A stretch of DNA of 27,738 nucleotides from Scenedesmus sp. ARA3 (taxonomy: Eukaryota; Chlorophyta; Chlorophyceae; Sphaeropleales; Scenedesmaceae), in assembly GCA_004335835.1 (NCBI GenBank), contig RWJK01001296.1, positions 1,129 to 28,866 on the forward strand. The letters are read 5' to 3'. This document shows, one piece after another, positions 1,743-26,580 of the stretch. Under the pieces are notes generated by a model. It was not told the origin of the DNA and did no database searches. It saw only the letters and a program-made list of their open reading frames with translations. The translations under genes were made by a program, and so were the position numbers. How positions within the stretch are numbered: the first letter of the stretch is position 1; each line of letters opens with the position of its first letter.

Positions 1743-2237
1743 GGAGCACAGCACAACATGTACATAACACGTTATGACACAGGCGATGCTGTACAGCACA
1801 ACGTGTACATAACATGTCGTGACGCAGGCGCTGCTGTACAGCACAACGTGTATATAACACGTTATGACACAGGCGATGCTGTACAGCACAACGTGTACAT
1901 AACATGTCGTGACGCAGGCGATGCTGTACAGCACAACGTGTATATAACATGTCGTGACGCAGGCGATGCTGTACAGCACAACATGTACATAACATGTTAT
2001 GACGCAGGCGACGCTGTACAGCACAACATGTACATAACATGTCATGACGCAGGCGACGCTGTACAGCACAACATGTACATAACATGTTATGACGCAGGCG
2101 ACGCTGTACAGCACAACATGTACATAACATGTCATGACGCAGGCGATGCTGTACAGCACAACGTGTACATAACATGTCGTGACGCAGGCGATGCTGTACA
2201 GCACAACATGTACATAACATGTCGTAACATGTCGTAA
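1743..2237. repeat. 45-bp minisatellite, about 11 units
   Basis: The marker GCTGTACAGCACA recurs at about 1788, 1833, 1878, 1923, 1968, 2013, 2058, 2103, 2148 and 2193, so the period is exactly 45 bp. A degenerate unit precedes the series and a truncated one closes it. Units differ at a few positions (GTGTACAT, GTGTATAT or ATGTACAT; TGTCGT, TGTCAT or CGTTAT). Variant order suggests 90-bp dimers were copied: units 1-2 resemble 3-4, and 6-7 resemble 8-9. Each unit holds two palindromic TGTACA hexamers, so it could fold into hairpins. Because 45 is divisible by three, the array is open in one plus and two minus frames. I read these open frames as a consequence of the period, not as genes. Confidence 0.95.
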
Positions 2238-5253: not shown

Positions 5254-5481
5254 CAAAGCTGTCATTGCTGCAACATCAGCATGCAGCATTTGACCAGAAC
5301 CTTCCTGGAAACAAGGCACTCCACGCCCGCCCGCGCCAGCCAAACAAGCAGCACCGCACTTGAACATATCCAAACCACCACACAAACCACTGGCCCTGTA
5401 TGCACCCCTCTGGCAGCGACACAAGCAACACCGCACCCGCTGCATTTATCCACGACCGGACCGGATCACATCACACGAACA

Positions 5482-5568
5482 CCACTGGCTCTGCCCCGCC
5501 CCTGCCAGCGGCAACAGCCCTCCACTTTTAGGAGTGAGCGTTGGCAGCTCCTTGCTGTGGTCCCTGCA
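5482..5568 (-). repeat. tail copy of kinase exon 13 (C-terminal coding end)
   Basis: This segment repeats 5746-5832 with about 90% identity at an offset of 264 bp. It still encodes the C-terminal motif TLTPKSGG..PLAGAGQSQW, but it lies past the stop codon, so it is 3'UTR or flank. It follows the same pattern as the exon-edge copies inside the gene, except that what is copied is the end of the coding sequence and not a splice donor. Confidence 0.85.
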
Positions 5569-5736
5569 CATAGTCCAGCCTGAAAGCAAGCATATCACCA
5601 CACAAACCACTAGCCCTGCGCTCCAACCCTGAAACAGCTGGGCCTGCTGTGCATGGCGCATCTACCCAGTCATTACTGCACATGTTGATGTCAAACCTGC
5701 AGATCATCAGAAAGGAAACTGGAAACAAACACTCCA

Positions 5737-6487
5737 TCACACAAACCACTGGCTCTGCCCCGCCCCTGCCAGTGGCGACAGCCCGCCACTTTTGGGAGTG
5801 AGCGTTGGCACCTCCTTGCTGTGGTCCCTGCTGCCCGGCCTGCTGCTGCCTCCAAAGATGTTGCTGCTGCTGCCGCCGTTGCCAGCTAGCTTACTGAAAA
5901 AGCTGCGCACACCAGATCCAGATAGAGGCCGCCGAGCAGCCAATGGCGAGGCACGATTCGAACCGCTGTCGTCACTTACATCGTCCGGCCTCTCACCGTC
6001 ACCGATTGTTAGTGACAGCCGCCGCGCGGGCAGCGCGACCGCACTCTTTAAGCTCGCTGCTTTGAGCAAGTTCTGCTGCTGCTGCTGCTCGCGCTGCACC
6101 TGCCGCTTTGCAGGGTTGCTGAGTAGCTCCTCGGCTGACTTGTGCGTGACCGGCGCTGCTGTCTGCGCTGCTGCTGCTGGGTTAGAAACAGCCACCGCGC
6201 CGGCTTGCAGTGCTGCGATGCGGCTGCCTGCGATGTGGCTGAGGCACTCCACCAGCTGCTGCGCTGTGGGGCGCTCTGAGGGGTCTGTGGCCCAGGCGTG
6301 CTCCATAAGGGTGGTGTAGTCCTGAGGCATGCTGGGGGGGACCACCTGAACGCACAAAAGAATGAAAGCGGCAGGTTGAGAAAGCAGCAGCAGCAATAGG
6401 CGTGCTCCGTGAGCGTTGTGTAGTCCTGCGGCATGCTGGGGGGGACCACCTGCACAGAGCACAAAAGTGGTTTCAAGGCAAGTTTGA

Positions 6488-6525
<38 letters not shown>

Positions 6526-6709
6526 GCAATGGTCGTTCCAGCTGGCAGCACTTCCCTCCGTGCTGTGGGTGGAATGCACTTGTGCACATTGCTGGAAGCC
6601 TCAACAAAGCAAAAGCAAGAGGCAGCAGCCGCAGCAGGAGCCCTGAAGGGACAGGACAGGCGATGCTGTCTCACACCCCGCCTCTACCTCTCTGCGCCAC
6701 CAGTACGGT

Positions 6710-6740
<31 letters not shown>

Positions 6741-6848
6741 CACCGGGCGCAGGTCGTTGACCACGATCGTCTCAAAGAACTGCCCATACAGCAGCTTGCC
6801 AAATGCCTCCTGGCCGGTGAACAGCTCCCACATCATGATGCCAAAGCT

Positions 6849-6879
<31 letters not shown>

Positions 6880-8284
6880 GAGGTGGTCAGCATCCTCATA
6901 TGCGCAAGTTCTGCCGCCCCAGGCATTGCATGAGTGGATGTAGGGTTCAGCGCATGCCTTGCCTCAATCACTCACCTGTACAAATCATCACCCTGGCTGC
7001 CGTGTCTCACCTGTAAACGTCCACGTGGGGCGACATGCGCCCCGAGCGCAGCAGCTCCACAAGAGAACGCCCTGATCTCTACACAAGCTCAGGTGTCTCA
7101 CTTTCACAAAATCTGAAGCCTCTTCAATGAATATGTCTAAGTCAGCAAGCACTGCAGCCAGCCAACCAGCAGAAACCACGGGAACCTTCTGTTAACCTTT
7201 CGTTCACCTGAACCAGAGTGTCTCACCTGTACACGTCCACATGTGGCGATATGCGCCCCGAGCGCAGTAGCTCCGGCGCCGAGTGTGTGATGGTGCCTAG
7301 GTTGGTGGTGGTGCGGTGCGTCTTGTGCTGTGCGATGGCCTTGCTGATACCCAAGTCTGCAATCTTGGCGGTTGCCCCGGCCTCAGATGCAGTGTCGGTT
7401 GCGACCAGCATGTTGCGGGAGTTCTGCAAACATTGCATTGACGGCAGGGCACACCATGGGTAAGTGACTGGCAAAGTATGGGTGCCGTGTGCTGCGGGAT
7501 GGCCTTGCTGATACCGAGATCAGCGATCTTGGCTGTCGCGTCGGCCTCTGATGACGCATCGGTTGCAACCAGCACGTTGCGGGAGTTCTGCAACCATTAG
7601 ATATGACAGCAGGGCACACCATGGGTAAGTGACTAGCAAAGTGATGTGGATGTTTCTGAGCTGAGCAATTGCATTGCTTGTGCCGAGATTTGCGACCTTG
7701 GCAGTTGCGCCAGCTTCTGATGACGTGTCAGTCGCAACCAGCACGTTGCGGGAGTTCTGCGTGTGTGTCGGCAGCACGGCGCGCCAGACGTTTGTTGCGG
7801 TGTTATGCGGCTGTTTGTTGTACATAGATGGCGAGAGGAAGGAGCTGCGTGACAGACGCTGTGCGGATCACAACATCCCTCCAGCACGTTGTAGACTAAG
7901 CAGAGCACTCGCCACACATCCCTATGCATGGTCATAACAACATAAGTAACAGCATGACAGCTGCCGTCCTCACCAGGTCCCCGTGCACCACCGCCTGGTT
8001 GTGCAGTGCAGCCAGGCCCTTAGCGGTGCCCCTTTTTCTTGACATACTTTGCAACACGTTTATAACAACAAACCTAACAGCATGACAACTGCCGGCCTCA
8101 CCAGGTCCCCGTGCACCACGGCCTGGTTGTGCAGCGCCGCCAGGCCCTTTGCTGTGTCGCGCAGCATCAGCACCAGCAGCAGCACCGCCTGCTCGTCGCA
8201 AGCCGCCAGCCGGGCAGGCACCTCGTTGCGAGCCAGGAAGGCCTTCAGGGTGCCCTGGTCACAGTACTCCTGCAAAAGCAGCAA

Positions 8285-8316
<32 letters not shown>

Positions 8317-8410
8317 GCTGCAGGTTGAAGACAGCGCAGGAGGACGCGTGGCAGGAAGGCCTTCAGTGTGCCCTGGTCACAGTACTCCTGCAGCAGCAGC
8401 AACAGCAGCG

Positions 8411-8442
<32 letters not shown>

Positions 8443-8522
8443 TGCAGGGTGAAGACAGCGCAGGAGGACGCGTGGCAGGAAGGCCTTCAGTGTGCCCTGG
8501 TCACAGTACTCCTGCAGCAGCA

Positions 8523-8562
<40 letters not shown>

Positions 8563-8661
8563 CAACAGCAGCAGCAGCAGCAGCAGCAGCTGCAGGGTGA
8601 AGACAGCGCAGGAGGACGCGTGGCAGGAAGGCCTTCAGTGTGCCCTGGTCACAGTACTCCT

Positions 8662-8705
<44 letters not shown>

Positions 8706-10316
8706 TGCAGGGTGAGGACAGGGCAGGAGGAGGCGTGCCAGGAAGGCCTTCAGCGTGCCAGGGTAGCAGTACTCCTGCAGCTGCTGCTACTGCTGCAGTT
8801 GCTGCTAGAGGAGGGTTCAACATATGGCTAAAGCTGCAGGTGGCAGAGTCTCCTGACTTTCATCCATCCCAATGCTCATTCGCCTTCAAGGCCGCCTGCC
8901 CTTGCGCAGCGTGATGGATTGCAACACAAAGCACCGAGTTGCTTGTGCATTGCCTCAAAGATTCAGTTTGAGGTAAAGAACAAGCACCGCAGTGCTTGAT
9001 GTAACAATGCCTTGCAGCTGCACAAGCAGCAGGAATGCTACAACCACAATCTGCAGCAGACTGGACAGTCACAACCTCCCATGACTGCTTGAACAGTAGG
9101 TTTAGTTAGGAGTTGGAATGGATTGCTTAGAATTACTGCTCTGCCTGGTCTGCTGAGCACCACTTGAATGATGGCAGCAGCATGCCACACCACACCACGC
9201 GCAAATGCACAACAAAGCATCCACATCGGCTCGCATGATAACAACAACCCCGCCTGTACAACAACCCTGCACCACCCGCCGCACCTGTACCAGCCATGTC
9301 GCCAGCATGTTCATGCCCTCATGCACATTCTTCGACCCCCTCGATCCCTGGCCGACACCTGCCGAGCTCCTGCTCGTCTGCAGCAGATTCGTGCCACCTG
9401 GAGTCATCTGCACGCTACTGCTCTGGTTGCTGCCGCTGGGTCTACTGCAGTGGCCGCCGCCGCCGCTGTTTGGAGGCGTGACATGCATCCCGCTGCTGCT
9501 GCGCACTTTGATCAGCCCGCCCACAATGCTGCTGCTGCTGGGGGTGCCTTGCTGCGACTGGCCGGCTGAGGGAGGAGCAGATGCCACCACTACCTCACTT
9601 GCTGCAGCAGCAGCATCGCCAGACTTCCGCGAAGGCTTCACAGCCGCATTGCTGCTGCCAATGCTGCGGCTGCGCTCAAAGCTGCTGTTGCTCTTGCGCT
9701 TGCCGCCGCCGCTGCTGCCAGCCCCTGCTGCCGCCGCTGCAGCTGCTGCCGCCACGGAGGACTGGTCATTCAGGGGTGTGCCTCCAAAGCTATTGAGCTC
9801 CATGCTGTTGTTGTCCATGCTGTCACGTGTGCCGGCTAGCAGGGACTCGCTGCGCTCAGGGGCCAGCAGCCGGCGGTAGGTGAGGCAGCGGTAGGCGCGG
9901 ATGACGTAGGGCGAGTTGAAGGCCATGAGCAGGTGCATCTCGTTGACCTGCACAATGTGGGGAAAGAGCAGCAGCAGCAGCACAGTATGCGTATGAGCAG
10001 GTGCATCTCGTTGACCTGCAGGAACAGGCATTGCCTAAGTCAAATGTGCAGGTGGATAAGAATCAGGCGTAGTGACAGATCCACGGCAGCATCTCAATGA
10101 CCTGCAGCGCTGTGCATGATAACCGGATGCGCAGCAGATGAGGCCTAGGCCTTCTGCAAGATCCATGGCAGCAGCCCCGTGCACCCTGGCAGTAGCCTGC
10201 GCACATAGCAGCAGGTCAGATTGACTAGCAGGAGCACAAGTTCATATTGCTGGAAATGAACTGCTGCAGAGTTGCTCGGGACCGCTGCCAGAAACCGCTG
10301 CAAGGGACCAGCAGCA

Positions 10317-10358
<42 letters not shown>

Positions 10359-11044
10359 GCACCAGGGCCTCACCACGGACTCCGCTGTGTCCTGGTTGTG
10401 CTCCACCACCTTGACAGCAACGTCCCTGCCGTCCCACCTGCAGACACACCACGGCAGCACAGCACACCACGGCAGCAGACAACCAAGCCAGCTTGTCAGG
10501 CACAAATCAGGCAAAGTAACTGGTGCACTGATAGCATGCAGAAGCGCCAGAACAGGCGCCGCAGGTCTGGCTGGGGCGCTCTGCATAGGCATTGCCCAGC
10601 CATTGCCCAGCCATTAACAGCAGCAGCAGCAGCAGCAGCGGCATTCCACCCACCTGCCCCTGACGGCGCTGTTCGGCGTTTTGGGCAGGCACATGGTGTG
10701 ACGATCGCGGAAGATGCTAGTGCAGGCACAACAAGAAACTACAGCAGCCAGCTGCAGCCGTCGATATGGCTGGTGTGCTTTACCAGGCAACCTACAAGAC
10801 AGCAACAGCACGTCTGCACCATGCAGAGCATCTGCCCCTGTGCACCATGCTAATGACAGCAGCAATCCTACCTGCCCCTGTACACCCGGCCGAAGCTGCC
10901 AGCTCCGATGAACTCCCTGAACTCAATCGGGGCATCCGGGTCCTCAACAGTCCCCAGGAAGGGCGACACAAAGCTGCTTGCAAGCTCCCAGCCCTTATCG
11001 GTGCCTTTTGGCATGAGCGAGGCGCCGCCAGAGCCATGGTAGCT

Positions 11045-11086
<42 letters not shown>

Positions 11087-11212
11087 GCAGCAGTGCAACA
11101 CAGAATTGTGTCAAGCCACAGTCCCCAGGAAGGGGGACATAAAGCTGCTTGCCAGCCCCCAGCCTTTGTCGGTGCCCAGGCATGAGTGTGGCACCGCCAG
11201 AGCCATGGTAGC

Positions 11213-11256
<44 letters not shown>

Positions 11257-11397
11257 GCAGCAGTGCAGCACAGATTTGAGTCCAGCCACAGACCCCAGGA
11301 AGGGAGACACAAAGCTGCTTGCAAGCTCCCAACCTTTATCGGTGCCCAGGCATGAGTGTGGCACCGCCAGAGCCGCCATGGTAGCTGCAGCAACGGC

Positions 11398-11434
<37 letters not shown>

Positions 11435-11519
11435 CTTTAGCAAAGGTCAGCTCCCAGCCCTTGTCGGTGCCCGTAGGCATGAGTGTGGCACAGCCGGAGC
11501 CGCTATGGTAGCTGCAGCT

Positions 11520-11564
<45 letters not shown>

Positions 11565-12449
11565 GTAATGCACCATAGAATCAAAGGAAAGCCACAGACC
11601 TTCTGGATTGCCATCAGCTGCTGCAACAGTCGCGCATTCTTCGGCTCAGCAGCCAATCAATCGTTTGCTGTTGATGAAGCAGCAGTCTGCCCAGGTCTTC
11701 CCATCACGCCCTGCCTACCTTTTGCCCGTCATGCGCTCTCCCGGCGTGCCTGTGCCTGCCTCCGAGTCAAGCAACGTCTTGGCAGCTGCATACAGCTTCT
11801 TCTGCTTGCGGTGGTACAGCACCATTCCCAGCACACCACCCAGCAGCACTGCAGCAGCAGCACAGCCATTGAAACAATCAGCACATGCGGCCAACATACA
11901 TTGCTGCACGAAGGTAGTCCTGCGACAGATGCTCTACAATTGGTGTCGACAGCGCTCACAGCACACATCCAACAGCAACACTGCAGCTGCCTGCAATAGC
12001 CGCAGCCGCTTTCCACTTGTGATGTTACAACAGGCATGCTGCATGCAAACTCCTGCAGCACTCACATGCAGCAACCAGGGGCACTGCGATGGCTGCTGAT
12101 CTGAGAGGGCTTGACAACACACACAGGGCATCAACCAACTGCAGCAATGCAGCTGCACCTGCACAGAGGAGTCGCTTCCCACTCGGACTGTAACAACACG
12201 TTTGCTGTGTATTACATTTCACAGCTAGTAGGAGGTATTGCAACCCTGCTTGCATGCAATTGACTGTATTTCCTCTGTCAACAACAGAGTCAATTTTTGT
12301 TGACAGAGGACAACAATGAATCAAGAAACTACTCACGTGCAGCGACCAGGGGCACTGCAATAGCCACTGCCATGAGCGGCCCTGACAGCTTGCCCTGGGA
12401 GCGCTGCTGCTCCTCCACCTGGTCAATCAGCTTGTTCACGCAGGCCTCT

Positions 12450-12493
<44 letters not shown>

Positions 12494-12813
12494 CACAACA
12501 GCACAGCTGATCGCTTGAGGACTGCGTTCTGAACACTGAGTTAGGCATGCGTGCGTAGCCAAACTGCTGCGGTTATAACCCCTCTTCCAGCGGCATGCAT
12601 GTGTGGGGGTTACTTTCAGCGAGGCATCGCTTGTCATATGCAGCTGCCGACTGGCTTTCACTGCTTCATCACCAGATCAAATCACTTGCTTGCTAGAAGT
12701 ACTGCACCAACGTAAGCCAGCCTCACCTGCAGACTCGCCCTCCAGGCACTCTTTCGTCACGTAGTGCTCACACACACGGAAGGAGTTGATGGCATGCTGC
12801 AGGCACAGACGTC

Positions 12814-12845
<32 letters not shown>

Positions 12846-13672
12846 ACCAGGCAGTGTACACACGCTGAGGGTCAGAGACAGGCCTCCACAGTGCTGCACA
12901 GAAGTGCAGGCGGCTGCCTCAGCAAAACAGCAGCAACACCAGAACCCACATGTAACTACCTCGCTTCCACATTGCAGCATTGCATGCGTGCATGGCAGCG
13001 CAACAGGCTTGAAAAGGGCTGCACAGAGCTTGTGTGCTAGCGCGCTGCTTGAAAGAAACTAACGGCAAGAGCAGGCAGCTGGCTCAGCAACACAGCAGCA
13101 GCATGACGCAGCATTGCAAGCGTGCTGGTCTTGCAGCTGGCCTATACAGAGCTGTGTAAAGCCGGAAGCGGGTAAGCTGCGCGATTGAAGCCACAGCGCC
13201 TGCCATTATAGTTTAGGAGTTAGGGGTTTAGGTTAGGGCTGAGTAAAAATCCTCAACGTCAAACCCTTGAAGCCACAGTGCCTGCCATTACTTGCCTGTG
13301 CGTAGCCGCCAGTGTAGCCACGCCCTGCAGCACAGACAACACGGCAGCAAGAAACACAATTCGGATGCATGCTTGCACAGCAGGGCGAGAGCGCATTGTG
13401 TCAGGCACCACTGCTGCTGCCGCTGCTGCTGCTGCTGCTGAGGAAGCATCCCTTTTCTGGCATAGCACCCATCTTTGCTCTGCTGCTGAGCTGCTGCTGC
13501 TCAGGGGGGGGCTATGTGCCTGCTCAAACTTCACAGCGGCCGCAGCAATGCGAGCATGCTGCATGTCACAGCACTGGACAGCAGCTGCTGCCAGGCTGCT
13601 GCGCAAACATGTACACACACAAGGCTGCACAAGCCGTGCATGCCAGGCAGCTGTGCAGCTCTTGCGCAGTAC

Positions 13673-13704
<32 letters not shown>

Positions 13705-16100: not shown

Positions 16101-16120
16101 CGCCTCGAGGCTGCCAAGTT

Positions 16121-16129
16121 TTAGGGTTT
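16121..16129 (-). promoter_or_regulatory. telo-box (AAACCCTAA) in the kinase 5' leader or promoter
   Basis: In gene sense the sequence is AAACCCTAA, 21 nt upstream of the start codon, inside a TTTTAGGGTTTAAGGG stretch on the plus strand. AAACCCTAA is the plant telo-box, found near transcription starts of many plant genes. Function in this alga is inferred by resemblance only. Confidence 0.4.
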
Positions 16130-17228
16130 AAGGGCTCTGCGGAAGGCCCAGAGGCCGCGCTGCAGGAAAGCTGCCAGGTGCTGCCCCCGCCAAATGGTTA
16201 TGCACCGACACACCCGCTCTTGACAGCCGTTTTCCGGTCTGATTATCGGTTTGGTTGTCAATACGGGCTTCTGAAATCACCAACCGGCTGCAGCGTTGTC
16301 TAAACTTATGACTCAAAGATCTTACATCAGTACTACGAGGCTGCTTGCAGCCAATATCAATTGACATGTTCACAGACACAGTTGCGGCAGACGGTGTGGC
16401 TGGAGCGAATTGACCACAAAGAGGTTAGGCCCGCCCCGACCTCTTGACAGCCTGGACAGCCCAAGTTACGGAAGCGGATGTTCATACACAGGCACAGTAA
16501 TTCAGCACATCTAGTTACAAATGTTCGTGGAAGAAAGCAAGCAGCGTCGAACTCGCTAGGTGCAAGCGCGTCACTCACGAGGCTCACTAGCCTAGCAGGA
16601 CCTCCCGTGCCGCTACTGCCCCAACCAGCAGTTCATACACATGTGCAAATGATGTGTTCCTCTTTTTCACTCTGGGCGCCGATGTCGTTTCTTGTTCAGT
16701 GGATTGGTCACACTCCCGACTGCGAAGTTCATCCGTGAGAGCGCACCCGGGAGGAGCACGATGCAGAAGCAGCCTCCTCCTGACCGGCATTGTAACGATT
16801 AAGCATGTAACTGCAGCGTGTGCTGGAAGTGCTGTTCAGTGACGCACCATCTGTGAACAACATGCTCTCCTAGCAGGACTCCTCATCAGAGATGATCTGT
16901 CTCCTAGCAGGATCTGTCTGGCCACATCTTGCACTTGTTGATGGGCCTCCACAAGCTCCTAGCACAGCAGATTATGACGTGTTACAAGACGGAATCACTG
17001 CCATTGTCACGCATGCTTGAGACCAATACCCACACTCGCACGCCCACCTACTAGCACTGCTTGCTGCACAGCATGCAGCAGCCGCCCACTCAGAATCGCT
17101 TGCACTCCCCTCAGAACAACAGAGAACCGACAGCCTGCGAAGGCCGCTTGCAGCTGCCCACATAGCATCCATTCATGATGCAGAAACTTTCCTCACTCCA
17201 GTCATGCCACGCACTCAATAACACCCGG
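16130..17228. other. intergenic spacer between chaperone 3' end and kinase start
   Basis: No coding region is supported. The spacer must hold the chaperone 3'UTR (right part) and the kinase promoter (left part). A short direct repeat CTCCTAGCAGGA/TCTCCTAGCAGGAT occurs near 16866 and 16909, with a related CTAGCAGGAC near 16590. I see no clear TATA box. Confidence 0.5.
16982..16986 (-). terminator. TGTAA poly(A)-type signal, candidate for the chaperone gene
   Basis: TTACA on the plus strand, TGTAA in gene sense, 243 nt past the chaperone stop codon and the only such pentamer between them. This fits chlorophycean polyadenylation well; the exact cleavage site is not visible. Confidence 0.55.
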
Positions 17229-20200
17229 TCACAACTCTTCGTGTGCAGGCAGCTCCTCATCCTCCGCAGCAGTACTGCTGCTGCTGCTGCTGTCGCCGCC
17301 CTCTTGCTCCCCCGCACTTTCTTCCGCACCTGCACCCGCCTCACCCCCAGCATCCGCACCAGCTCCCTCTGCTCCTTCTGCTGTGCCTTCTGCTGCACCC
17401 TCTGCAGCTGCTGTCTCATTCGCAGATGCTGTCTCATTTGCCGCAGGCTTTGGCGGCTTTGGCTTCCGTTTGCTGTCCGTCTTGTGCAGCGCCTTCTGCA
17501 CGCCCTCCCACTTGGTGACAACATCCATGGCGATGAATGCAGGCTCCTCGGTGGGCTCCTTCTTGTCCTGTGCTTCAACCTGCTGCTGCAGCCACTGCGT
17601 GAACTCCTCCAGCTGCAGCAGTAATGATGATAGTATGGCAAAGCGACGGATGCACAACAGGCGACAGCGGCGGCGGTGGATGGCACAAGGCGGAACAGTG
17701 TCAGAAACGCGGCGAAGCAGGGAGCAACCTTTGAAGCAGAATATATGGGGCATACAACACACAATCTCAATCAATGTGTCGCCAGGGACGCAAGACGGCA
17801 GAAGGCTGCAACACTGCTGCATCTGCAACTCACACACTACAGCGCACCAAGCAGCAGCAGCGCCCACACCACGCACCTTGTCTGCAGCCGCCTTGGTGTC
17901 GTTTTCGTTGATCCAGGGCTTGGTGTCTGCCCAGCTGGCAATCAGCTTCTCAGCTGCCTCGCTCTGCTCCTTCACAGCAGACAGCACCTGCAGGAAAAAA
18001 AGTAGCAGCAACAGCAGCAGCAGCAGGCAGCAGCAGCACTCTCAGGCAATCACATGCACCTGCAGCATCAAGCAGCCTTCTTGCATCGTCGCCATACTTA
18101 CTGCGTTGCACCTGGCTTGTACAAGATGCGGCTGCTCCTGCCAGCGCAGTGTGCTGCTCCTGCACACCCACCACCAGCACTGCACGCCAACTGCTGCCAG
18201 CACAACGCCAGCAAATGCGTAAAACACCAATGAACAGAGACGCCTGATTGCCCACCTGTGGCCGCAGCCCCACCCACATCACCAAAAAGCCAACTCAACT
18301 GCAGCCAGCAAACTTTCAGCGGCACAATGCAAAGCACGAACGCAACATAACAATCCCCACCTGTGGCCGCAGTTCCAGCTCTGCTGCCCTGCGGGCGATG
18401 GGCTCCCCAACCGCCTTGAGGCCAGCCAGGCGGGTTGAAAATGCATCTGCAGCCTCCGCCTCGCCGTCACCGTACAGCCAGTCCTCAGCCTCTGTCAGCT
18501 GCTCGATGAACATCACGCGAGCCTCCTCGGTGGTGACCTGGCAGCAGCAGCAGCAGCAGCATCAGCAGCATCGCCAGAGGGCATTATCTGAAGTAAAGAC
18601 AGTAAAGCCTAAGCGCCTGCTGCGCTTCAAGGGTGTAGCCTGTTTTTGAACAAAAAATCACATTGGCAGGCAGCCCGCTCGCTGCAGCGCCTCCTGCGTC
18701 TGTGTAAGCCTCCAGGTGGTTTACATATACATGATAGATCGAGCTGCATCCAGATGCCGCGAGCCATCAAGACCCAGACGCACCATTTGTTCCCCATCAT
18801 CCCACCATTCCTCTCCAACGCACCAATATACAGGCATGCTGCAGCCAGGTGTACACATGTGCAGCTACACATGCCGATCATGTAGTCTATGGCAACACCT
18901 TGATCAGCGCAACACCTCCCACGCCCACAAACCTACCTGCTGCAGCGCCTCCTGCGTCTCCAGCTTCTCCCTTGTGGCAATGATGTAGGCCTCCAAGTCA
19001 TTCTTAGCCATGGCAGTGGCTGCATGCAGATGCCGCAAGCCATCCCAAACCAGGTGGCGTCTCCAACCACCCCACCGCTCCTTCCAACACACAAGCCAGC
19101 TGCAGCCCAGGTGTCCAGTCACACGTGCAGCGGCTGTGGTCCACGCCAACACTTGAAATTTGGCATCATGTAACACCTCTTGCCCGCAGACCCACCTGCT
19201 GCAGCGCCTCCTGTGTCTCCAGCTTCTCCCGTGTAACGATGATGTAGGCCTCCAAGTCATTCTTAGCCTTGGCAGTGGCTGCCTTCACAGTCTCAGCAGC
19301 CACCCAGGCAGCCAGGTGCGCCTGGGCCTGCTTGAGGGGCTCGCCTGAGAGCGGCGCGTGGCGCGGGCCGTCGCCCGTCACATTCAGCGTCACCTGCATG
19401 GACAAAACATAGGACAACATACACGGCTGATCAGTGCCGTGGAAAGAAACTGCTTGAGGGGCTCGCCTGAGAGTGGCGCATGGCGGGGGCCGTCGCCCGT
19501 TACGTTCAGCGTCACCTGCGCAGCCAACACGTACATAGACACTTGGTAAGTGTAATGAATAACTGGAGGCCGGGTGCCGAAATGCTAGATATCAGGCGCG
19601 AAGGATGCGTGGTAAAGCATCGAGCGTGTGGTGTGCGCTGCTGCCTGCAGCTGCTGGTTCCACAGGCAGCCACATGTGTCTGACAAGCTGTTGTTGCGAC
19701 ACCACCACAGCACTAAGCCAAGCCTGACTTGCACTGGCCCTGGCACGCAGCGCAGTGAACGATGATGGTGCTGACAGTTGCTGTGTGCCGTGCATCACGC
19801 TGCATGCAGCTGTCTCACGCCCCGGCTTGCACAGCTTGCCGCATCATACGCACATGGAACACCTTGCGCCGGGGGACCTGGATGGTCTTCTTGATGAACA
19901 CCGTCTTGTTGGCGGGCGCAGCCGCCTCGGTTGCGTTGGCAGCATCACCGCCAGCAGCTGCATCTCCTTCCTTCTTCTCCGCCTGCTGCTCATCATCTGC
20001 CTTGGCTGTCTCATCCTTCCCAGCATCCTTATCACCCTTGCTGTCAGCACCAGCATCCTTTGATGCGGCATCCTTATCTTTGTCGCCGGCCGCATCATCC
20101 GTTGCGTTAGCTGCAGCCCGCTCCGTTTCGTTTGCAGGCACAGGTACCTCGATGACCTTATCCTCAATCACTTCAAGTTCAACCACGCACTCAGCGCTGC

Positions 20201-20829
20201 TGAAGTGCAGCAGGCTGCTGTAGTCGGCCTCGAAGCGCAGCGTGGTCACGCCGGACTGGTTGTACCTGCAACACACAGGGAAGGGCGTGTGGGACGCAGC
20301 AGCAACAGTCGCAAAGGTTTCAGCAATCGGGCTATGTGATGCAACTGCACAGCAGTAGGAGCTCAACAGAAGCGCACCGCTTGGCGATGGCGTCCGTGAT
20401 GCCTGCCACGGTGTACCTGGCCAGCTCCGTGTTGGGCGGCAGGCCGTGCAAGGAGGCGTTTCACAACAAGCAAACACCAGAGAACATAAAAAGGCATCCC
20501 AAGCACATGGCCTCACCTCTTGATGGCATCCTGAATGCCTGCCACCGTGTACTTGGCCAGCTCTGGCGACTCCACACCCGGCGGCAGGCCATGCACGGTG
20601 CTCGCGTTGTAGCGCAGCTCGAAGCTGAAGCCGTCAATTGTCAAGTTGGTGTACTTGATAGCGCGCTTGATGGGCAGCTTCTTGCCTGCGGGGCAGCAGC
20701 AGATCACAAGTATTGGAGTGTGATTGTCAAAAGGCATTGTAGCGCAGCTCAAAGCTGAAGCCGTCAATCGTCAAGTTGGTGTACTTGAAGGCGCGCTTGA
20801 TGGGCAGCTTCTTGCCTGCAACCATACAG

Positions 20830-20866
<37 letters not shown>

Positions 20867-23757
20867 GTAGCAGCCAAGTACATTTGAGCGACTCTGAGGG
20901 TCAGCCTGGTGTACGTGATGTGTGCTTGCACAGCATCTTGCTTTCGGGCAGCGCGGCCGGGACGCGCGTGTTCAGGGACAATTTGTGTTTGACTGATGCA
21001 AACGTGTGTGTAGGTGTGCAAGGAGCGTCTTAGTGCGGCACGCTTGCCTGCTGATCCCTGTGACACAAATTACACGTAAACAAACCTCGTACGCTACGCA
21101 TGAAGGGGTGCTGCCGGGTACAATCCAGACCGGAAAGCCAAACATCAGCAAGCCGCACCTGCGGGCAGCAGGTTCTTGAGCACGTGGCCAGATTTGCTGC
21201 TGGCCAGCGGCTCCACCGCCTCCTCCTCCACTGCTGCTGCTCCCTTCTTGCCCTTCGCCTTGGACTTCTTGGACGCCTTGCTGCTGGCGGCTGCGTCCTT
21301 GGCGGGCGCTGCTGCTGCTGGTGGCAGGTGCAGGTCGTGGCTCTCAAAGCTGACGCCGAATGCGGCGATGTCTGTCATGCCAAACTTCTGCAGGCGGCAA
21401 GGCAGAATGACCCAGGGTAGGCAGCAGTTTCAGGGTTGTCGACAGCCAAGCTGTTGCATGCGGCAGGTGGTGCCTGCACAGCATGATGCAGGCGAGCCGC
21501 ATGCTAGCACTGGGCGATGTCTGCCACGCTGCACCCGCCACTACTGTGCTGTGCTGCCTAGGTGGTGGCCATCACCGATGTACTCATGGAGCTATCAAAT
21601 CAATGACGCTATCAATGGCTGTGCCCCTCACCCGCAGCCTGAAGCTGCTGGACAGGTTGGCTGCAAACAGCCCCGCACCCAGCACCAGCGCCTCGTCAGC
21701 ATCCAGGTGCCGATCCAGGTGCCTATGAGGAAGCAGCAGCGGCAGCAGCAGCAGCAGCAGCAGCACAAGGTCAGGGCCCAGGCGCAAACATTAGTTGTCA
21801 TGCATTTGTAAGGCACTAGCGCCTTGTCATCATCCAGGTGGCGATCCAGGTGCCTGCCGGGTGGCAGCAGCAGCAGCAGCAGCAGCGCAAACATACAACC
21901 CCAATCAACGCGAAAACAAGCATCAAACACGCACTGTGCACAGTTTTGCCGAGCTGTGCTCAGCTGCTGCTGGGTACGGGCTGCGTGCAGACACACACCA
22001 CATCACCAGTGAACTGTTATGAACACAGCTGACCACATGCACCTGCCGCCCAGCGCTGCGGACAGCTCCGCCTGCAGCTTGGGCGCGCATTGATACGCAA
22101 CTTGCAATAAGACATTATTTGCAACACAAAACACTCTGCCCATCATCGAATTGAGTGCTGCTGAGGTCTCATCTCAAGCGCACCTGCCGCCCAGCGCTGC
22201 GGACAGCTCCGCCTGCAGCTTGGGCACGCGGCTGCCTCCGCCTAGCAGCTCCACCGGTTCAACGACTACACACAAACCATGCGTGAGTCGTGTCGCAATC
22301 AAAACCAATGAACAACGGCCAGCCCATCAACACGTTGAAGCCTGCTGGGTGTAGGCGCAACCTGCAGTCTGGCACAAACCACACCACTGGCTGGTGTGGC
22401 CAGACCCGTCACACGGCCACACGCACCTGCCGCCCAGCGCTGCGGACAGCTCCGCCTGCAGCTTGGGCACGCGGCTGCCGCCTCCCAGCAGCTCCACCGC
22501 GTCCACGTCCTTGGCGGCAAGCTTGTTGCGCGCCAGCAGCTTCGTCAGCGGCGCCTGCACAGTGCAAACGAAGGTTGATGGCAAGATAGGCGATAGTTAG
22601 TGCGGCTATTGCGGGACAGCAGCTTCGTCAGCGGCGCCTGCGCGTGCGCAGCGATTCAGAGCAAGGGGCTTGTTCAGGCTTGCACGCACACATCATAGAC
22701 ATCTCCACCCAGCCGCCTGCCGACCAAAGCCGCACACAACCAAACAAATGATTTTTTCACATCAAAAGAGCGGCCGAGCAGCAGCGCACTCACCGCCACG
22801 CGCTTCCAGTAGTCTCCCGCCATCGCCTCAAACTCCTCGCGCTTGATCGAACTTTGGAAGTCCTTGCCCTCGTGCAGCTCCTCCACGCTGATGGGGGCGG
22901 CGCTGTTGGCTGACAGCACCTCCTTGGTGCGGCGCACCTGCTTGCGCAGCTTGGCCATGGCCTTGGGGGACTTCCTGCAAGCAGCACGGCATGCTTGCTT
23001 TGAGGTTATAACGGGTGAGTTTTCATTTTACAACATGTAAGCAGGGACACCAGTGGTTATGTTGAATATGCATCCTGGCCTGTTGTCACGGGTGCCGCAG
23101 GCTTGATAGCTGCCTGCTGCTGAATAGCGCTTCTGCAGAGGTGCTGCTGCATGCCGCTGCTGGTGCTGCCTGCGGGCTGCTGCTGCTTTCGTAGCTGCGC
23201 TTGCTGCTGCTTCAGTACTGCTGCGACCTCTGCTCCACTGGCCAGATGTGTGCAAGCCACCTGGCATGGCCCGCTGCCTGCTGCTCCTGCTGTACTCCCC
23301 TGCCTGCACTTGATGCTGATATGGGCCGTGGGCCGATGGCCATATGCTATGGCTGCATTCATAGCACACTGAGTTGTTGAATGGCTGCGGCTGCTGTCTC
23401 ATTTGATGTAGCCTGCTCACACAGCCTGATTGGCACCCGTTTTCCGCATTACTGGGGCGGGGAGCAGGTGGTGCTAATGTTGCTGTTGGCTGAATTGGAG
23501 ATGTTAATGGTGCTGGGAGACCGCGCTGCCCCACCTGACGTCGCCGCCTCCCTTGTCCATGAATTCCTTGGCAAAGTGCTCCGCCAGCAGCAGGTCAAGG
23601 CTGTTGCTGCCCAGGCTGCAGCCAGCAGCAGACAAACAGAGAAAACAGCAGCAGCAGCCGCAGCAGCGGCGGTGTTGGCGGACAGCAACGACTTTCAACA
23701 GACGCAGCTGCGTGAGAATTTGAGGGCTGCACCAGTGCACTAGCTTATACGCATCTC

Positions 23758-23790
<33 letters not shown>

Positions 23791-24530
23791 TGACTTTTTG
23801 TCACCAAGGCCAGGCCCCTACCTGTGGTCCCACTCCACGTCCAGCACCTCAAACTAGTTGGTGACGCCCTTGGAGGATCCCGGCCTGCAAAACATCACGC
23901 TGCGCTGGCCCAAAACCACTGCACGCCTAACAGCAGCCACAGCAACACCGATACCACAACAGAAAAAGCAGCCAGCCAGCCAGCCAACAGCAGCAGCCGC
24001 AGCTGCTCTCAAACTATCAGCCCTGTCAATAGCCAACCGACTACACCCACCTGTGGTCCCACTCCACGTTCAGCACCTCAAACTGTTTGGTCACGCCCTT
24101 GAAGGAGCCCGGCTTGCAAAACATCACGCTGCGCTGGCCCAACACACCACTGCACGCATAACAGCAGCCACAGCAACACCGCTACCACGACAGAAAAAGC
24201 AGCCAGCCAGCCAACAGCAGCAGCCGCAGCTGCTCTCAAACAGTCAGCCCTGTCAACAGCCAATCGACTACACCCACCTGTGGTCCCACTCCACGTCCAG
24301 CACCTCAAATTGGTTGGTCACGCCCTTCGAGGAGCCGGGCTTGCCGTACACGCTGTACTTGACCAGCGCGGCCTCTGTGCTGCCGCTGCCGATGTCGTAC
24401 AGGATCACCTGCAGTGTTACAAACAAGTGTGACAAGCTGGTTGTAAAGCACTGCAAATACAGTATGACATGTATACTACACCAGAACAAGGACATTCGCT
24501 CTCAGTGTCTCTTGCTATGAGGTGCTGCTG

Positions 24531-24567
<37 letters not shown>

Positions 24568-26580
24568 GTCTATGTGTCAAATACGCGGATCCAGCCAGCG
24601 CAATGCTGAGATGGCTTTGACTGTGTGCTGGGCACATGCAGCTGCGCAGCACGTTGTTGCATCACAGCTAGGCTGCTGCAGCTGTACGCTGCTGCTGGCC
24701 AGCTGTATGCTGCAGCTGTGGCTGGCCTGCTGCCACCCCACAAGCTAACCAGTATCACACATGCACATCAGCATGCTCTCACCGTCTGCTCCTTTTTAGC
24801 GAAGTCCCGCTCGATTCCAAACTGCAGCGCTGCTGCTGCGTGGCCGTTGACCAGCCCCAGCACGTTGAGTCCTGCAAGGCTTGCTGCATCAATCACTGCC
24901 TGGCGCTGCGCCACGCCAAACCAGGCGGGCACTACAACCACTGTGTCCACAACTGATTCGCCGGCCTGCGCATCTGTGATCTGCTTGGCGTACTGGAAGA
25001 TGCCAGCCTGCAGAAAGGGCAGCATTGCGGTTGCAAATGTTTGGGCGTGATATACAAAGGCACCACCACCACTGTGTCCACAACTGACTTGCCAGCCTGC
25101 GCATCTGTGATCTGCTTGGCATACTGGAAGATGCCAGCCTGCAGGAGCGCGCAGCAGTGCGGTTGAAAATGTGTAGTGCATGATATACACAGGCACCACC
25201 ACCACTGTGTCCACAACTGACTCGCCGGCCTGCGCATCTGTGATCTGCTTTGCATACTGGAAGATGCCAGCCTGCAGGACAAGCAGCAGTGCAGTTGCAA
25301 TGTTTAGTGCATGATATACACAGGCACTACAACCACTGTGTCCACAACTGACTCCCCGGCCTGCGCATCTGTGATCTGCTTGGCGTACTGGAAGGTGCCA
25401 GCCTGCAGGACAGGCAGCAGTGCAGTTGCGATTTTTTAGTGCATGATATCAAAAATACCACTACCACTGTGTCCACAACTGAATCGCCGGCCTGCGCATC
25501 TGTGATCTGCTTGGCGTACTGGAAGATGCCAGCCTGCAGGAAAGGCAGCAGTGCAGTTGCAAATGTTTGGGCATGATGATTTGAGAGGCGGCAAAGGGAA
25601 CGAACGGTTCCCCATGGTAATGGCCGTAAAGTGTGCTGACTGCACCCCCCTATTTGCATGCGACAAGATAGATTAGTTGAGTGTGAGGCTGGAAGCAAGG
25701 CAGGCATGCAGCAGGGTTGCTGGGACAGGGTTTGCTGCAGGAGCACCTTGCTGTCCTGCAAGCGCTGGCAGCTGCTTGCAAGGACAGCTTGATGCCGCTG
25801 ATTGCCAGACAATAGATGCTATCACCAACACAGCAGCCGTAATAGGGTGGGTCACTAGCAGCATGCCAGCTGAAGGCATGTGCAGGACCGTTGGGTTGGG
25901 TTGCTGCAGCGATGCAGTGTGTCCCATTTGCCTGGCATTTGCTGCATGCTGTTATTGGCTGCTGCTAGGCTGTAACAGACATACTTTCCCTTTTGAAATC
26001 CAGATACACAATGCTTGGTGATTGCTGGGCACACACATGACCGAACATGTGCGCAGCAGCCACTGCAACCGCCAGCACTGTTGGCAACTGCTGCTGTGTA
26101 CTGCCTGCTGCTGCACCAAACGCTCTCTGCCTTTGTTCCACTCACCACTAGCTCTTCCACCAGATAGGAAGTGGTCTCATTGACCTGCAGCGCTGCTGTG
26201 CCTCGCTCTGGGTGGTCCACCACTGTGTAGGGCAGAAGGTTCTGCTGCACAAGTCGTTGCACCTCTGCGTCCCCTGCTGAGCGTCCCAGCAGGTTACGCA
26301 GCTGGCTGAAAATCAGGTTGGGGTAACGAATTCCTAAAGAAGATGCCTCTTCTCCCAGGACACGCTCCTCCTCCACTATGCCCACGAGCGCGGGGCTCTT
26401 GCGCCTGGACATCTCATTCACCACTATGCTGATGGGCGTGCGTCCAGGTTTGACTAAACACACCTTCAGATATTCACTGCCAAGATCGATTGCCATGAGC
26501 GATCCCTGGGCGGCCAGCATCAGCTGGCACGCCAGGAGTGCAACCAAGCAGCAGGACGCGGTGCCTTTTAGCCTCGTCAT
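17229..26580 (-). CDS. HYOU1: ER-lumenal Hsp70-superfamily chaperone, HYOU1/GRP170 (Hsp70-17) type
   Basis: Exons in gene order: 26580-26146, 25007-24783, 24408-24278, 23615-23535, 22974-22794, 22554-22427, 21722-21632, 21387-21159, 20685-20517, 20265-19854, 19393-19196, 18537-18361, 17987-17877, 17612-17229. They sum to 2952 nt, all phases join, and the protein is 983 residues, close to human HYOU1 (about 1000). Residues 1-26 are a signal peptide. The ATPase domain shows MAIDLGSEYLKV at 29-40, DTVVVVPAWFG in exon 2, ILYDIGSGSTEAALVKYSV in exon 3, LLLAEHFAKEF in exon 4, PKAMAKLRKQV and TKEVLSANS in exon 5, and DAVELLGGGSRVPKLQAEL in exon 6. Exons 8-10 encode the beta substrate-binding region with a charged Ala/Asp/Lys loop, and exons 11-14 the alpha lid (KNDLEAYI, EDWLYGDGEAE). 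An acidic, Asn-Glu-Thr-rich tail ends in HEEL, an HDEL-like retention signal. GRP170 proteins hold unfolded clients and act as nucleotide exchange factors for BiP. The donor of exon 10 could instead be 12 nt earlier (AAG|GTGTTC). Confidence 0.94.
18248..18275 (-). repeat. short tail copy of chaperone exon 12
   Basis: CCCACCTGTGGCCGCAG repeats the exon-12 end and donor at 18356-18372, about 106 bp further into the intron. It retains CAG|GTGGG in gene sense. Confidence 0.65.
18676..19020 (-). repeat. two tail copies of chaperone exon 11
   Basis: The exon-11 end at 19196-19280 (coding AKNDLEAYI and REKLETQEALQQ, then donor GTGGGT) is repeated at about 18937-19020, with coding preserved (AMAKNDLEAYIIATREKLETQEALQQ). 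A shorter repeat lies at about 18678-18705. The intron segments after each copy are also related (GCATCCAGATGCCGCGAGCCATC and GCATGCAGATGCCGCAAGCCATC), with an offset of about 259 bp. Confidence 0.88.
19445..19530 (-). repeat. head copy of chaperone exon 11
   Basis: This repeats 19330-19400 with one-base differences. The acceptor GCAG|GTGACGCTGAA and the codons for VTLNVTGDGPRHAPLSGEPL (with small changes) are retained. Offset is about 125 bp upstream in gene sense. After the copied part it diverges into intron. Confidence 0.9.
20380..20456 (-). repeat. tail copy of chaperone exon 9, diverged but in frame
   Basis: It encodes NASLHGLPPNTELARYTV then AGITDAIAKR, compared with NASTVHGLPPGVESPELAKY then TVAGIQDAIKR in exon 9 (20517-20606). 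Differences include synonymous changes and in-frame length changes. It ends in a usable donor AAGCG|GTGCGC in the same phase 2 as the true donor. No AG acceptor precedes it, so it is not a ready-made exon. Confidence 0.8.
20735..20820 (-). repeat. head copy of chaperone exon 9
   Basis: This repeats 20604-20688 at about 95% identity, offset 132 bp. It includes an acceptor TTGCAG|GCAAGAAG and encodes GKKLPIKRAFKYTNLTIDGF. It is preceded in gene sense by a (CTG)10-11 tract. The copy runs out where the true exon reads NASTVHG. Confidence 0.92.
21820..21890 (-). repeat. head copy of chaperone exon 7 with CAG tract
   Basis: TCATCATCCAGGTGGCGATCCAGGTGCCTGCC repeats the exon-7 head at 21695-21725 (HLDRHLDADEALV), offset about 125-140 bp, each followed on the plus strand by a (CAG)n tract (21732-21764 and 21864-21886). 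The flanking CGCAAACAT is also shared. Confidence 0.85.
22041..22260 (-). repeat. two tail copies of chaperone exon 6
   Basis: The exon-6 end at 22425-22500 (coding GGGSRVPKLQAELSAALGG, donor GTGCGT) recurs at 22182-22255 and, shorter, at 22041-22090. Donors read AG|GTGCGCT and AG|GTGCATG. The longer copy still encodes a glycine-rich SRVPKLQAELSAALGG. Confidence 0.92.
22616..22640 (-). repeat. short head copy of chaperone exon 6
   Basis: CAGCAGCTTCGTCAGCGGCG (then CCTGC) repeats 22535-22558 about 82 bp upstream of the real acceptor, keeping GCAG|GCGCCGCTGACG in gene sense. Confidence 0.75.
23815..24130 (-). repeat. two tail copies of chaperone exon 3
   Basis: The exon-3 end at 24278-24345 (coding VTNQFEVLDVEWDH, donor AG|GTGGG) recurs at about 24050 and 23819, period about 230 bp. 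The following intron (AACATCACGCTGCGCTGGCC, CAGCAGCCACAGCAACACCG, AAAAAGCAGCCAGCCAGCCA) is copied as well. The farthest copy contains an in-frame TAG (AAC TAG TTT) and the donor variant GTAGGG, signs of relaxed constraint. Confidence 0.93.
25060..25560 (-). repeat. four head copies of chaperone exon 2 (3' splice-site array)
   Basis: The block GTACTGGAAGATGCCAGCCTGCAG recurs with its first bases of GATGCC at 24999 (true exon), 25130, 25263, 25394 and 25525, offsets 131, 133, 131 and 131. Each unit holds about 80 nt of exon head (AGIFQYAKQITDAQAG, then the DTVVVV block), an acceptor CTGCAG, and about 50 nt of intron tail with a CACTAAA-like branch-site candidate in several units. None of the upstream copies continues into PAWFG. 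Because 131 and 133 are not multiples of three, splicing to the next copy upstream would shift frame. Confidence 0.95.

What the first reader, a model, noticed from the sequence alone, without database searches (positions are those of the whole stretch)
5482..25560. Exon edges are reiterated in tandem inside introns across two unrelated genes
In the kinase, exons 2, 5, 7, 9, 10, 11 and 13 have edge copies; in the chaperone, exons 2, 3, 6, 7, 9, 11 and 12 do. Head copies carry intron tail + acceptor + exon start; tail copies carry exon end + donor + intron start. Exons 10, 11 and 13 (kinase) and 6, 9 and 11 (chaperone) have both kinds. The only model with consistent phases uses, every time, the splice sites that give the shortest exon. 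Inference: segmental tandem duplication across exon-intron junctions is a continuing source of intron length here, and the spliceosome must ignore dozens of near-identical sites. I know of no named system of this kind.
Basis: partly seen in the sequence, partly recalled or inferred. Interest (0 to 1): 0.88.

Follow-up and report, generated by a model that had tools for sequence, protein, structure and literature searches.

The report
Exon-edge copies fill algal introns
In a green alga, many introns carry repeated copies of the neighbouring exon's edge with its splice signal, which go with longer introns and leave the cell several near-identical places to cut, so it is a natural test of how splicing picks the right one.

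Summary
The window is nuclear DNA of the green alga Tetradesmus obliquus, with two minus-strand genes of 14 exons each: an ER Hsp70 (HYOU1/Hsp70-17 type) and a receptor-like kinase. Sixteen of their 26 introns carry direct-repeat copies of an adjoining exon edge with its splice site. It is not local: in gene sets taken from the same genome, edge copies occur in 16 of 29 introns (CCT/Cpn60), 8 of 25 (Hsp70) and 4 of 56 (kinesin). Of 101 copies called on exon sequence alone, 95 keep GT or AG; the used site scores best at only 29 of 53 copied junctions. Introns without copies have a median of 245 bp, those with copies 667 bp, and 263 bp after copy spans are removed. Best reading: recurrent tandem duplication (median unit 127 bp) across exon-intron junctions; the 'shortest exon' rule follows from keeping the old coding sequence. 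Unexplained: homology often stops at the splice site, and copy-exon differences are third-position biased although copies carry frameshifts. A preference for exon edges is not proven once intron shortness and fast intron decay are allowed for. My searches listed no paper describing this.

The parts
17232..26580 (-). ER Hsp70 (HYOU1/Hsp70-17 type, ends HEEL), 14 exons: 26580-26146, 25007-24783, 24408-24278, 23615-23535, 22974-22794, 22554-22427, 21722-21632, 21387-21159, 20685-20517, 20265-19854, 19393-19196, 18537-18361, 17987-17877, 17612-17232
   Evidence: 983 of 983 residues to P0002 plus an N-terminus read from the window
5740..16100 (-). Receptor-like kinase, 14 exons: 16100-15868, 14418-14091, 13793-13724, 13324-13296 (GC donor), 12796-12727, 12447-12337, 11848-11719, 11042-10872, 10437-10374, 9947-9285, 8269-8102, 7423-7227, 6846-6744, 6345-5740
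   Evidence: 976 of 987 residues (P0121 with 72 residues of exon 10 read from the window); P0122 agrees at 18 of 18 splice sites it covers
25059..25539 (-). Four head copies of chaperone exon 2 (acceptor + 77-82 bp), tandem array
23816..24123 (-). Two tail copies of chaperone exon 3 (67-73 bp + donor)
22607..22643 (-). Head copy of chaperone exon 6 (31 bp)
22037..22266 (-). Two tail copies of chaperone exon 6 (22178-22266 and 22037-22088)
21813..21859 (-). Head copy of chaperone exon 7 (41 bp)
20734..20821 (-). Head copy of chaperone exon 9 (82 bp, 94%)
20386..20427 (-). Tail copy of chaperone exon 9 (86%; donor lost)
19450..19521 (-). Head copy of chaperone exon 11 (66 bp)
18931..19030 (-). 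Tail copy of chaperone exon 11 (94 bp, 90%)
18250..18271 (-). Short remnant of a tail copy of chaperone exon 12; P0001 (another T. obliquus record) bears a longer copy of this exon's end, annotated as coding
   Evidence: 14 of 16 bases + GT; proteins
14464..15337 (-). Nine head copies of kinase exon 2 (acceptor + 24-48 bp)
12060..12116 (-). Tail copy of kinase exon 6
11118..11514 (-). Three head copies of kinase exon 8, separated by CTG tracts
9993..10021 (-). Head copy of kinase exon 10 (23 bp, 100%)
8346..8759 (-). Four head copies of kinase exon 11 with CTG tracts (8346, 8470, 8618; shorter match 8733-8759)
7968..8030 (-). Tail copy of kinase exon 11 (57 bp)
7488..7762 (-). Two head copies of kinase exon 12
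7005..7058 (-). Tail copy of kinase exon 12 (48 bp)
6398..6455 (-). Head copy of kinase exon 14 (52 bp)
5469..5567 (-). Copy of the kinase stop-codon end plus 3' flank (matches 5735-5831, 92%)

Best explanation
Short direct tandem duplications (repeat unit median 127 bp, middle half 110-143 bp) arise often in this alga's genes. Those that span an exon-intron junction are tolerated because the exon-proximal donor or acceptor still restores the old mRNA; those inside exons are purged. Some junctions then expand into arrays of up to nine copies by unequal exchange. The copies are non-coding relics in the intron. The exon part and the splice-site consensus stay alike longest because the used exon is held constant by selection (and perhaps by gene conversion), while the indel-rich intron side drifts in both copies. 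Introns grow from about 250 bp to several hundred bp and hold rows of strong decoy sites, among which splicing takes the exon-proximal one. Shown: copies, position, splice-site retention, array structure, intron length, gene models. Inferred: the duplication mechanism, the unequal exchange and conversion, the purging, and that copies are not used.
For: Direct orientation only in the window and in 30 kb taken without regard to genes, 20 of 20 repeat pairs within 1.5 kb. Intron flank homologous to that of the used site in 45 of 92 copies and to another copy in 5 more; outermost array copies less often (6 of 20) than inner ones (33 of 47). Residual similarity upstream of 27 'non-homologous' copy acceptors: mean 0.44 against 0.30 for unrelated acceptors at -24 to -7 (my averages of the listing). 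Frameshifting indels in the exon part: 39 of 45, over 83 of the 92 copies. Intron length 245, 667 and 263 bp. Spacer never under 45 bp (acceptor) or 55 bp (donor). P0002, P0003 and P0122 use exon-proximal sites. Junction-spanning tandem duplication has a precedent in potato RdRp (PMC4974935, passages).
Against: Copy-exon differences are 234 synonymous of 358 (65%, copies of one array not independent), against about 40-43% if the copy is neutral and the exon changes only silently. At sites covered by one copy only, 86 of 127 differences are at third positions (p 8e-5 against one half). Changes assigned to copies in arrays: 27, 22 and 66 at positions 1, 2 and 3; copy singletons 15, 12 and 34. 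Intron homology is undetectable at 19 of 25 single-copy junctions and at 24 of 32 in the later uniform calls. In 27 acceptor copies the match to the used site falls to that of unrelated acceptors right at the junction. Gene classes differ (24 of 54 against 4 of 56, p 7e-6), which plain random duplication does not predict. No reads and no other strain's DNA were available.
Confidence: 0.6

Rival explanations
1. Exon-limited copying: break repair or replication in the intron switches template at short shared motifs (TGCAG at acceptors, AG-GTGNG at donors), copies 40-90 bp of the exon edge and returns, so that only the exon edge plus splice motif is inserted.
For: No detectable intron homology in 27 of 51 acceptor copies, with the match ending at the junction, and in 15 of 41 donor copies, with the match ending near +5. 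Copied fraction of 16-mers 0.16-0.20 just inside the exon edge, 0.04-0.05 just inside the intron, about 0 deeper than 100-110 bp in the exon. Introns rich in CTG/CAG tracts.
Against: Copy acceptors without detectable homology still have a full pyrimidine tract (0.65, n 25; used acceptors 0.64, n 111; other intronic TGCAG 0.50, n 210; p 9e-11), so they are not random TGCAG sites. Residual intron similarity 0.44 against 0.30. About half of the copies do have homologous flanks (50 of 92).
Confidence: 0.2
2. The copies are used: alternative acceptors and donors that yield regulated, partly unproductive or strain-specific isoforms, so that selection keeps splice site and reading frame.
For: 95 of 101 copies keep GT/AG; scores close to used sites; third-position bias; P0001 is annotated with an in-frame extra copy of the exon-12 end.
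Against: 39 of 45 indels in copies shift the frame; units not biased to multiples of three (23 of 92); no excess of an opposite splice site at the distal end of copies (10 of 40 tail copies with an acceptor score of at least 6 against 25% in controls; 0 of 48 head copies with a donor score of at least 6 against 8%); the branch-like motif CTNAY (recalled consensus) is in 24% of copy acceptors without flank homology, 53% of used acceptors, 19% of other intronic TGCAG; P0002, P0003 and P0122 use none of them.
Confidence: 0.12
3. Assembly artefact: two diverged haplotypes or collapsed repeats were joined into false local duplications.
For: A published assembly of strain DOE0152z is about twice the size of that of UTEX 393 (PMC5552973 and PMC5255914, whole texts), so diverged haplotypes may exist; the synonymous bias would fit two alleles joined together. 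Some fetched loci have gaps (L003, L006).
Against: 101 copies in 42 of 136 introns at regular spacing, with graded divergence and arrays of up to nine; no base other than A, C, G, T in the window; another record of the species (P0001) bears a copy of the same exon-12 end.
Confidence: 0.06

Closest known systems
Tandem genomic duplication as a source of introns (Rogers model; ATP2A1; fission yeast; PMC3443670, PMC4974935, passages seen)
   Same: Short tandem duplication in a gene, with duplicated splice signals deciding which part is removed
   Different: There an exonic AGGT segment or an intron-exon unit makes a NEW intron or exon; here existing introns are lengthened and, in the two window genes, one coding path is kept
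Potato RdRp duplication of an intron-exon structure (PMC4974935, passages seen)
   Same: Unit carries polypyrimidine tract, 3' splice site and exon sequence, as in the head copies
   Different: One event that added an intron and inserted exon sequence; here 44 of 136 sampled introns (BLAST calls) carry copies
Duplicated splice-site competition constructs (Reed and Maniatis 1986; recalled, not read here)
   Same: Identical sites compete; exon context and proximity decide (recalled)
   Different: Artificial constructs; here natural and found in many genes
Introner-like elements (PMC9860276, search listing only)
   Same: Repeated DNA tied to introns
   Different: Introners are families shared between genes; here cross-gene intron matches were 8, seven at E of 3e-4 or weaker and one at 2.5e-9 between neighbouring kinesin paralogues

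Membership tests
Local tandem duplication | Direct orientation, copies close together | tested here: met
   71 of 71 pairs direct in the window, 20 of 20 local pairs direct in 30 kb; adjacent spacing median 127 bp
Local tandem duplication | Contiguous unit: homology runs through both exon and intron part | tested here: inconclusive
   45 of 92 copies have an intron flank homologous to the used site, 5 to another copy only, 42 none detectable
[quoted passage not shown]
   copies lie inside existing introns; both window genes keep one coding path. No outgroup DNA, so past gain was not tested
Introner-like elements | Same sequence family in introns of many genes | tested here: not met
   8 cross-gene hits among 111 introns; two flanks next to an L048 copy found once each in the genome, a search that skips common words
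Alternative splicing of duplicated exons | Copy is a complete exon with both splice sites | tested here: not met
   no opposite site at the distal end above control: acceptor 10 of 40 tail copies against 25% control; donor 0 of 48 head copies against 8%
Alternative splicing of duplicated exons | Copy appears in mRNA | tested here: inconclusive
   not in P0002, P0003 or P0122; one annotated extra copy in P0001; no RNA reads available

The most novel reading that the evidence does not exclude
This alga has an active process that preferentially copies exon edges together with their splice sites into the adjoining intron, more in some gene classes than in others. The exon parts pass through a coding-constrained state (diverged alleles or part-time use) before decaying, which makes exon-edge copying a lineage-specific engine of intron growth and new-exon birth.
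Probability: 0.2. Interest if true: 0.85.

Novelty: new variant of a known kind. Interest (0 to 1): 0.62.

Why it matters
Intron length in this lineage (published mean 462 bp against 230-302 bp in the four other algae of one table, PMC5966456, passage seen) would have a concrete source: repeated junction-spanning duplication. Each array is a natural splice-site competition experiment with near-identical sites and real exon context, so rules of site choice (proximity, exon definition) can be measured with ordinary RNA-seq. The copies are also raw material for new exons, as the P0001 record may show. Gene predictors and assemblers could be misled by them.

Tried and rejected
Microhomology-only insertion at TGCAG: weakened by the pyrimidine tracts of copy acceptors. 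Coding selection on the copies today: weakened by frameshifts. Cassette exons: no excess of an opposite splice site at the distal end. Introners: no intron family shared between unrelated genes was seen. Foreign origin of the spacer next to a 99% copy in L048: found once in the genome; I first took its two intron flanks as unrelated, but they share a diverged stretch (by eye; above the null). Simple neutral tandem duplication: does not explain the third-position bias. Gene conversion alone: by reasoning, not by simulation, it predicts at most about 42% synonymous differences. An elongation-factor family search gave too few exons to use.

Ascertainment and dropped rows. Copies were found by exon similarity, so exon identity is biased upward. 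My first acceptor null was spoilt by masked bases and was redone. CCT: 72 of 72 hit rows and 11 of 11 loci used. Kinesin: 121 of 139 hit rows used on 28 loci of 27 contigs; 5 further contigs were not fetched and their 18 rows dropped. Hsp70: 6 loci fetched, 3 others besides the window gene not. Introns were kept only if splice scores summed to at least 12 and the residue gap fitted within 3: 85 of 142 neighbouring core pairs for CCT and kinesin (my count of the listing), 25 of 43 for Hsp70. Exon edges outside the window genes are inferred, without transcripts. The 7 intron-only families were counted by eye from the listing; intron-internal repeat pairs of any kind were in 14 of 111 introns, 13 of them with an edge copy.
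Full report
What the window is. The best protein matches are from Tetradesmus obliquus (Scenedesmaceae, Chlorophyta). The window is G000:C943:1129-28866 of an 87.3-Mb assembly in 1567 contigs. Two minus-strand genes take up most of 5.7-26.6 kb: an ER Hsp70 ending in HEEL and a receptor-like kinase. A splice-aware protein-to-DNA alignment gives 14 exons each, with 983 of 983 and 976 of 987 residues identical; 56 and 72 residues of the queries were read from the window itself. P0002 and P0003 agree with the model at 26 of 26 splice sites, P0122 at 18 of 18. P0121 agrees at 26 of 28, being annotated with an extra intron inside kinase exon 10, and P0001 at 25 of 28 because of its extra exon-12 copy. 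P0122 is a 742-residue uninterrupted frame on a 5.9-kb contig; I infer, without proof, that it comes from a transcript.

The observation. Self-comparison of the window with CTG tracts masked gives 71 repeat pairs, all in direct orientation. Of the 50 at 5469 or beyond, 38 include exon sequence at or within 8 bp of an exon edge (one at the stop-codon end), 10 join two copies of such an edge, and 2 do neither. Sixteen of 26 introns carry copies; a 17th has a short remnant.

Beyond the window. I took gene families by Pfam search of the same genome, fetched loci and inferred introns from neighbouring domain hits plus splice-site scores. Edge copies occur in 16 of 29 CCT/Cpn60 introns and 4 of 56 kinesin introns and, in a later replicate with the same thresholds, in 8 of 25 Hsp70 introns. 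Introns with repeats but no edge copy: 1 of 111 and 0 of 25. One shuffle per locus gave no hits. Edges paired with introns of other genes gave about 1.2 hits against 90. Chaperone-type genes and kinesins differ (24 of 54 against 4 of 56, p 7e-6); I have no tested reason for this. In three 10-kb stretches chosen without regard to genes, 20 repeat pairs within 1.5 kb were all direct.

Anatomy. Called on exon sequence alone, there are 101 copies at 53 junctions in 42 of 136 introns; 95 of 101 keep GT or AG. Adjacent spacing has a median of 127 bp and a middle half of 110-143 bp. The spacer between the exon part of one unit and the next unit is never under 45 bp at acceptors or 55 bp at donors, which would fit the need of the used site for intact intron signals (inference). 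In gapped alignments the copied exon part reaches 40-86 bp into the exon in the group with homologous flanks and 40-108 bp in the other (5th to 95th percentile). Position by position, the copied fraction is 0.16 (donor side) and 0.20 (acceptor side) just inside the exon edge and about 0.05 and 0.04 just inside the intron. Deeper than about 100-110 bp in the exon it is 0, save 0.007 in one donor-side bin; in mid-intron it rises again, to 0.06-0.25, because the copies themselves lie there.

Effect on intron length. Introns without copies have a median of 245 bp (75 introns), those with copies 667 bp (36 introns), and 263 bp when copy spans are removed. A published table gives T. obliquus a mean intron length of 462 bp against 230-302 bp in the four other algae (PMC5966456, passage).

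Splice sites. Copy sites score close to used ones (donors 10.7 against 11.3, acceptors 10.1 against 10.6). The used site scores highest at 29 of 53 junctions, so a weight matrix does not explain the choice; exon proximity fits it. In the acceptor copies without flank homology the branch-like motif CTNAY (recalled consensus) is found in 24%, against 53% of used acceptors and 19% of other intronic TGCAG, which may help to keep them silent. That the used site always gives the shortest exon is what any junction-spanning duplication must look like, because copies lie in the intron by construction.

Two features that resist a simple account. First, intron flanks. In 45 of 92 copies the flank is homologous to that of the used site and in 5 more to another copy; in 42 it is not detectably so, including 19 of 25 single-copy junctions; the later uniform calls give 24 of 32. 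In the 27 acceptor copies of this kind the match beyond the junction is about that of unrelated acceptors at -1 to -6, with a mean of 0.44 against 0.30 at -24 to -7 (averaged by me). Their pyrimidine tracts equal those of used acceptors (0.65 and 0.64; other intronic TGCAG 0.50). I read this as diverged duplicate flanks in indel-rich introns (identity 0.81 and 2.8 gaps per 50 bp in the alignable group, against 0.91 on the exon side). Exon-limited copying remains open. Second, codon phase. Copy-exon differences are 234 synonymous to 124 not. At sites covered by one copy, 86 differences are at third positions and 41 elsewhere; a neutral copy should not exceed about one half (p 8e-5). Changes assigned to copies within arrays show it too: 27, 22 and 66 at the three positions, copy singletons 15, 12 and 34, although the two largest arrays (kinase exon 2 and L011) look neutral. 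Copies are not coding now, since 39 of 45 indels shift the frame. A possible cause is that copy and exon have separate genealogies in a species with diverged haplotypes; one strain's assembly is about twice the size of another's (PMC5552973, PMC5255914, whole texts). I could not test this without other strains' DNA.

Is the edge preference real? For random 127-bp units around a 250-bp intron, 33% should be intron-only. I count 7 of 52 families (p 0.002), or 7 of 62 with the Hsp70 replicate (p 0.0001). Allowing 20%, because intron-only pairs fade faster, p is 0.30 and 0.11. The 20% is my estimate. So the raw pattern is strong, but targeting is not shown.

Polymorphism. P0001, another T. obliquus record, has an extra in-frame copy of the exon-12 end at residues 764-794 that P0002 and P0003 lack. 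The window keeps only a 16-bp remnant plus donor at 18250-18271. This suggests turnover between strains and a path to a new exon, or an annotation error.

Literature. Searches for intron, tandem duplication and splice site, duplicated splice sites or partial exon duplication, exon remnants in introns and T. obliquus genomes showed no description of this pattern among the titles and abstract openings listed. They cover only the open papers held, and long result lists were cut. PMC7590803 and PMC12571836 do not contain the word 'intron' in the main text held. The nearest named process is tandem genomic duplication in intron gain (PMC3443670, PMC4974935, passages), which makes new introns rather than lengthening old ones.

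Verdict. A real pattern, found in every one of the four gene sets sampled from this genome and not described in what I could search: a known kind of mutation in an unusual place and number, with two unexplained features that make it worth a population and RNA-level study.

Noticed in passing
window 1748-2223: Intergenic tandem array of a 45-bp unit, 10.6 copies, 93% alike
   Followed up: no
window 13290-13324: Kinase exon 4 is only 29 bp long and is followed by a GC donor (GCAAGT), so it is easily missed
   Followed up: partly
26 window introns: Donors mostly begin GTG (23 of 26) and acceptors mostly end TGCAG (21 of 26)
   Followed up: partly
window 5469-5567 and 5735-5831: The stop-codon end of the kinase and its 3' flank are also duplicated, outside any modelled intron
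   Followed up: no
P0001 (UniRef A0A383VU00), residues 764-794: Extra in-frame copy of the exon-12 end annotated as coding in another T. obliquus record; absent in P0002 and P0003
   Followed up: partly
P0121 versus window 9594-9377: P0121 is annotated with an intron inside kinase exon 10 that P0122 does not have
   Followed up: partly
L006, L011 and L048 loci: Six-frame Pfam hits alone already show partial exon copies as repeated hits to the same domain positions
   Followed up: yes
CCT and Hsp70 versus kinesin loci: Edge copies are about six times more frequent in chaperone-type genes than in kinesins (24 of 54 against 4 of 56); cause unknown, expression level untested
   Followed up: partly
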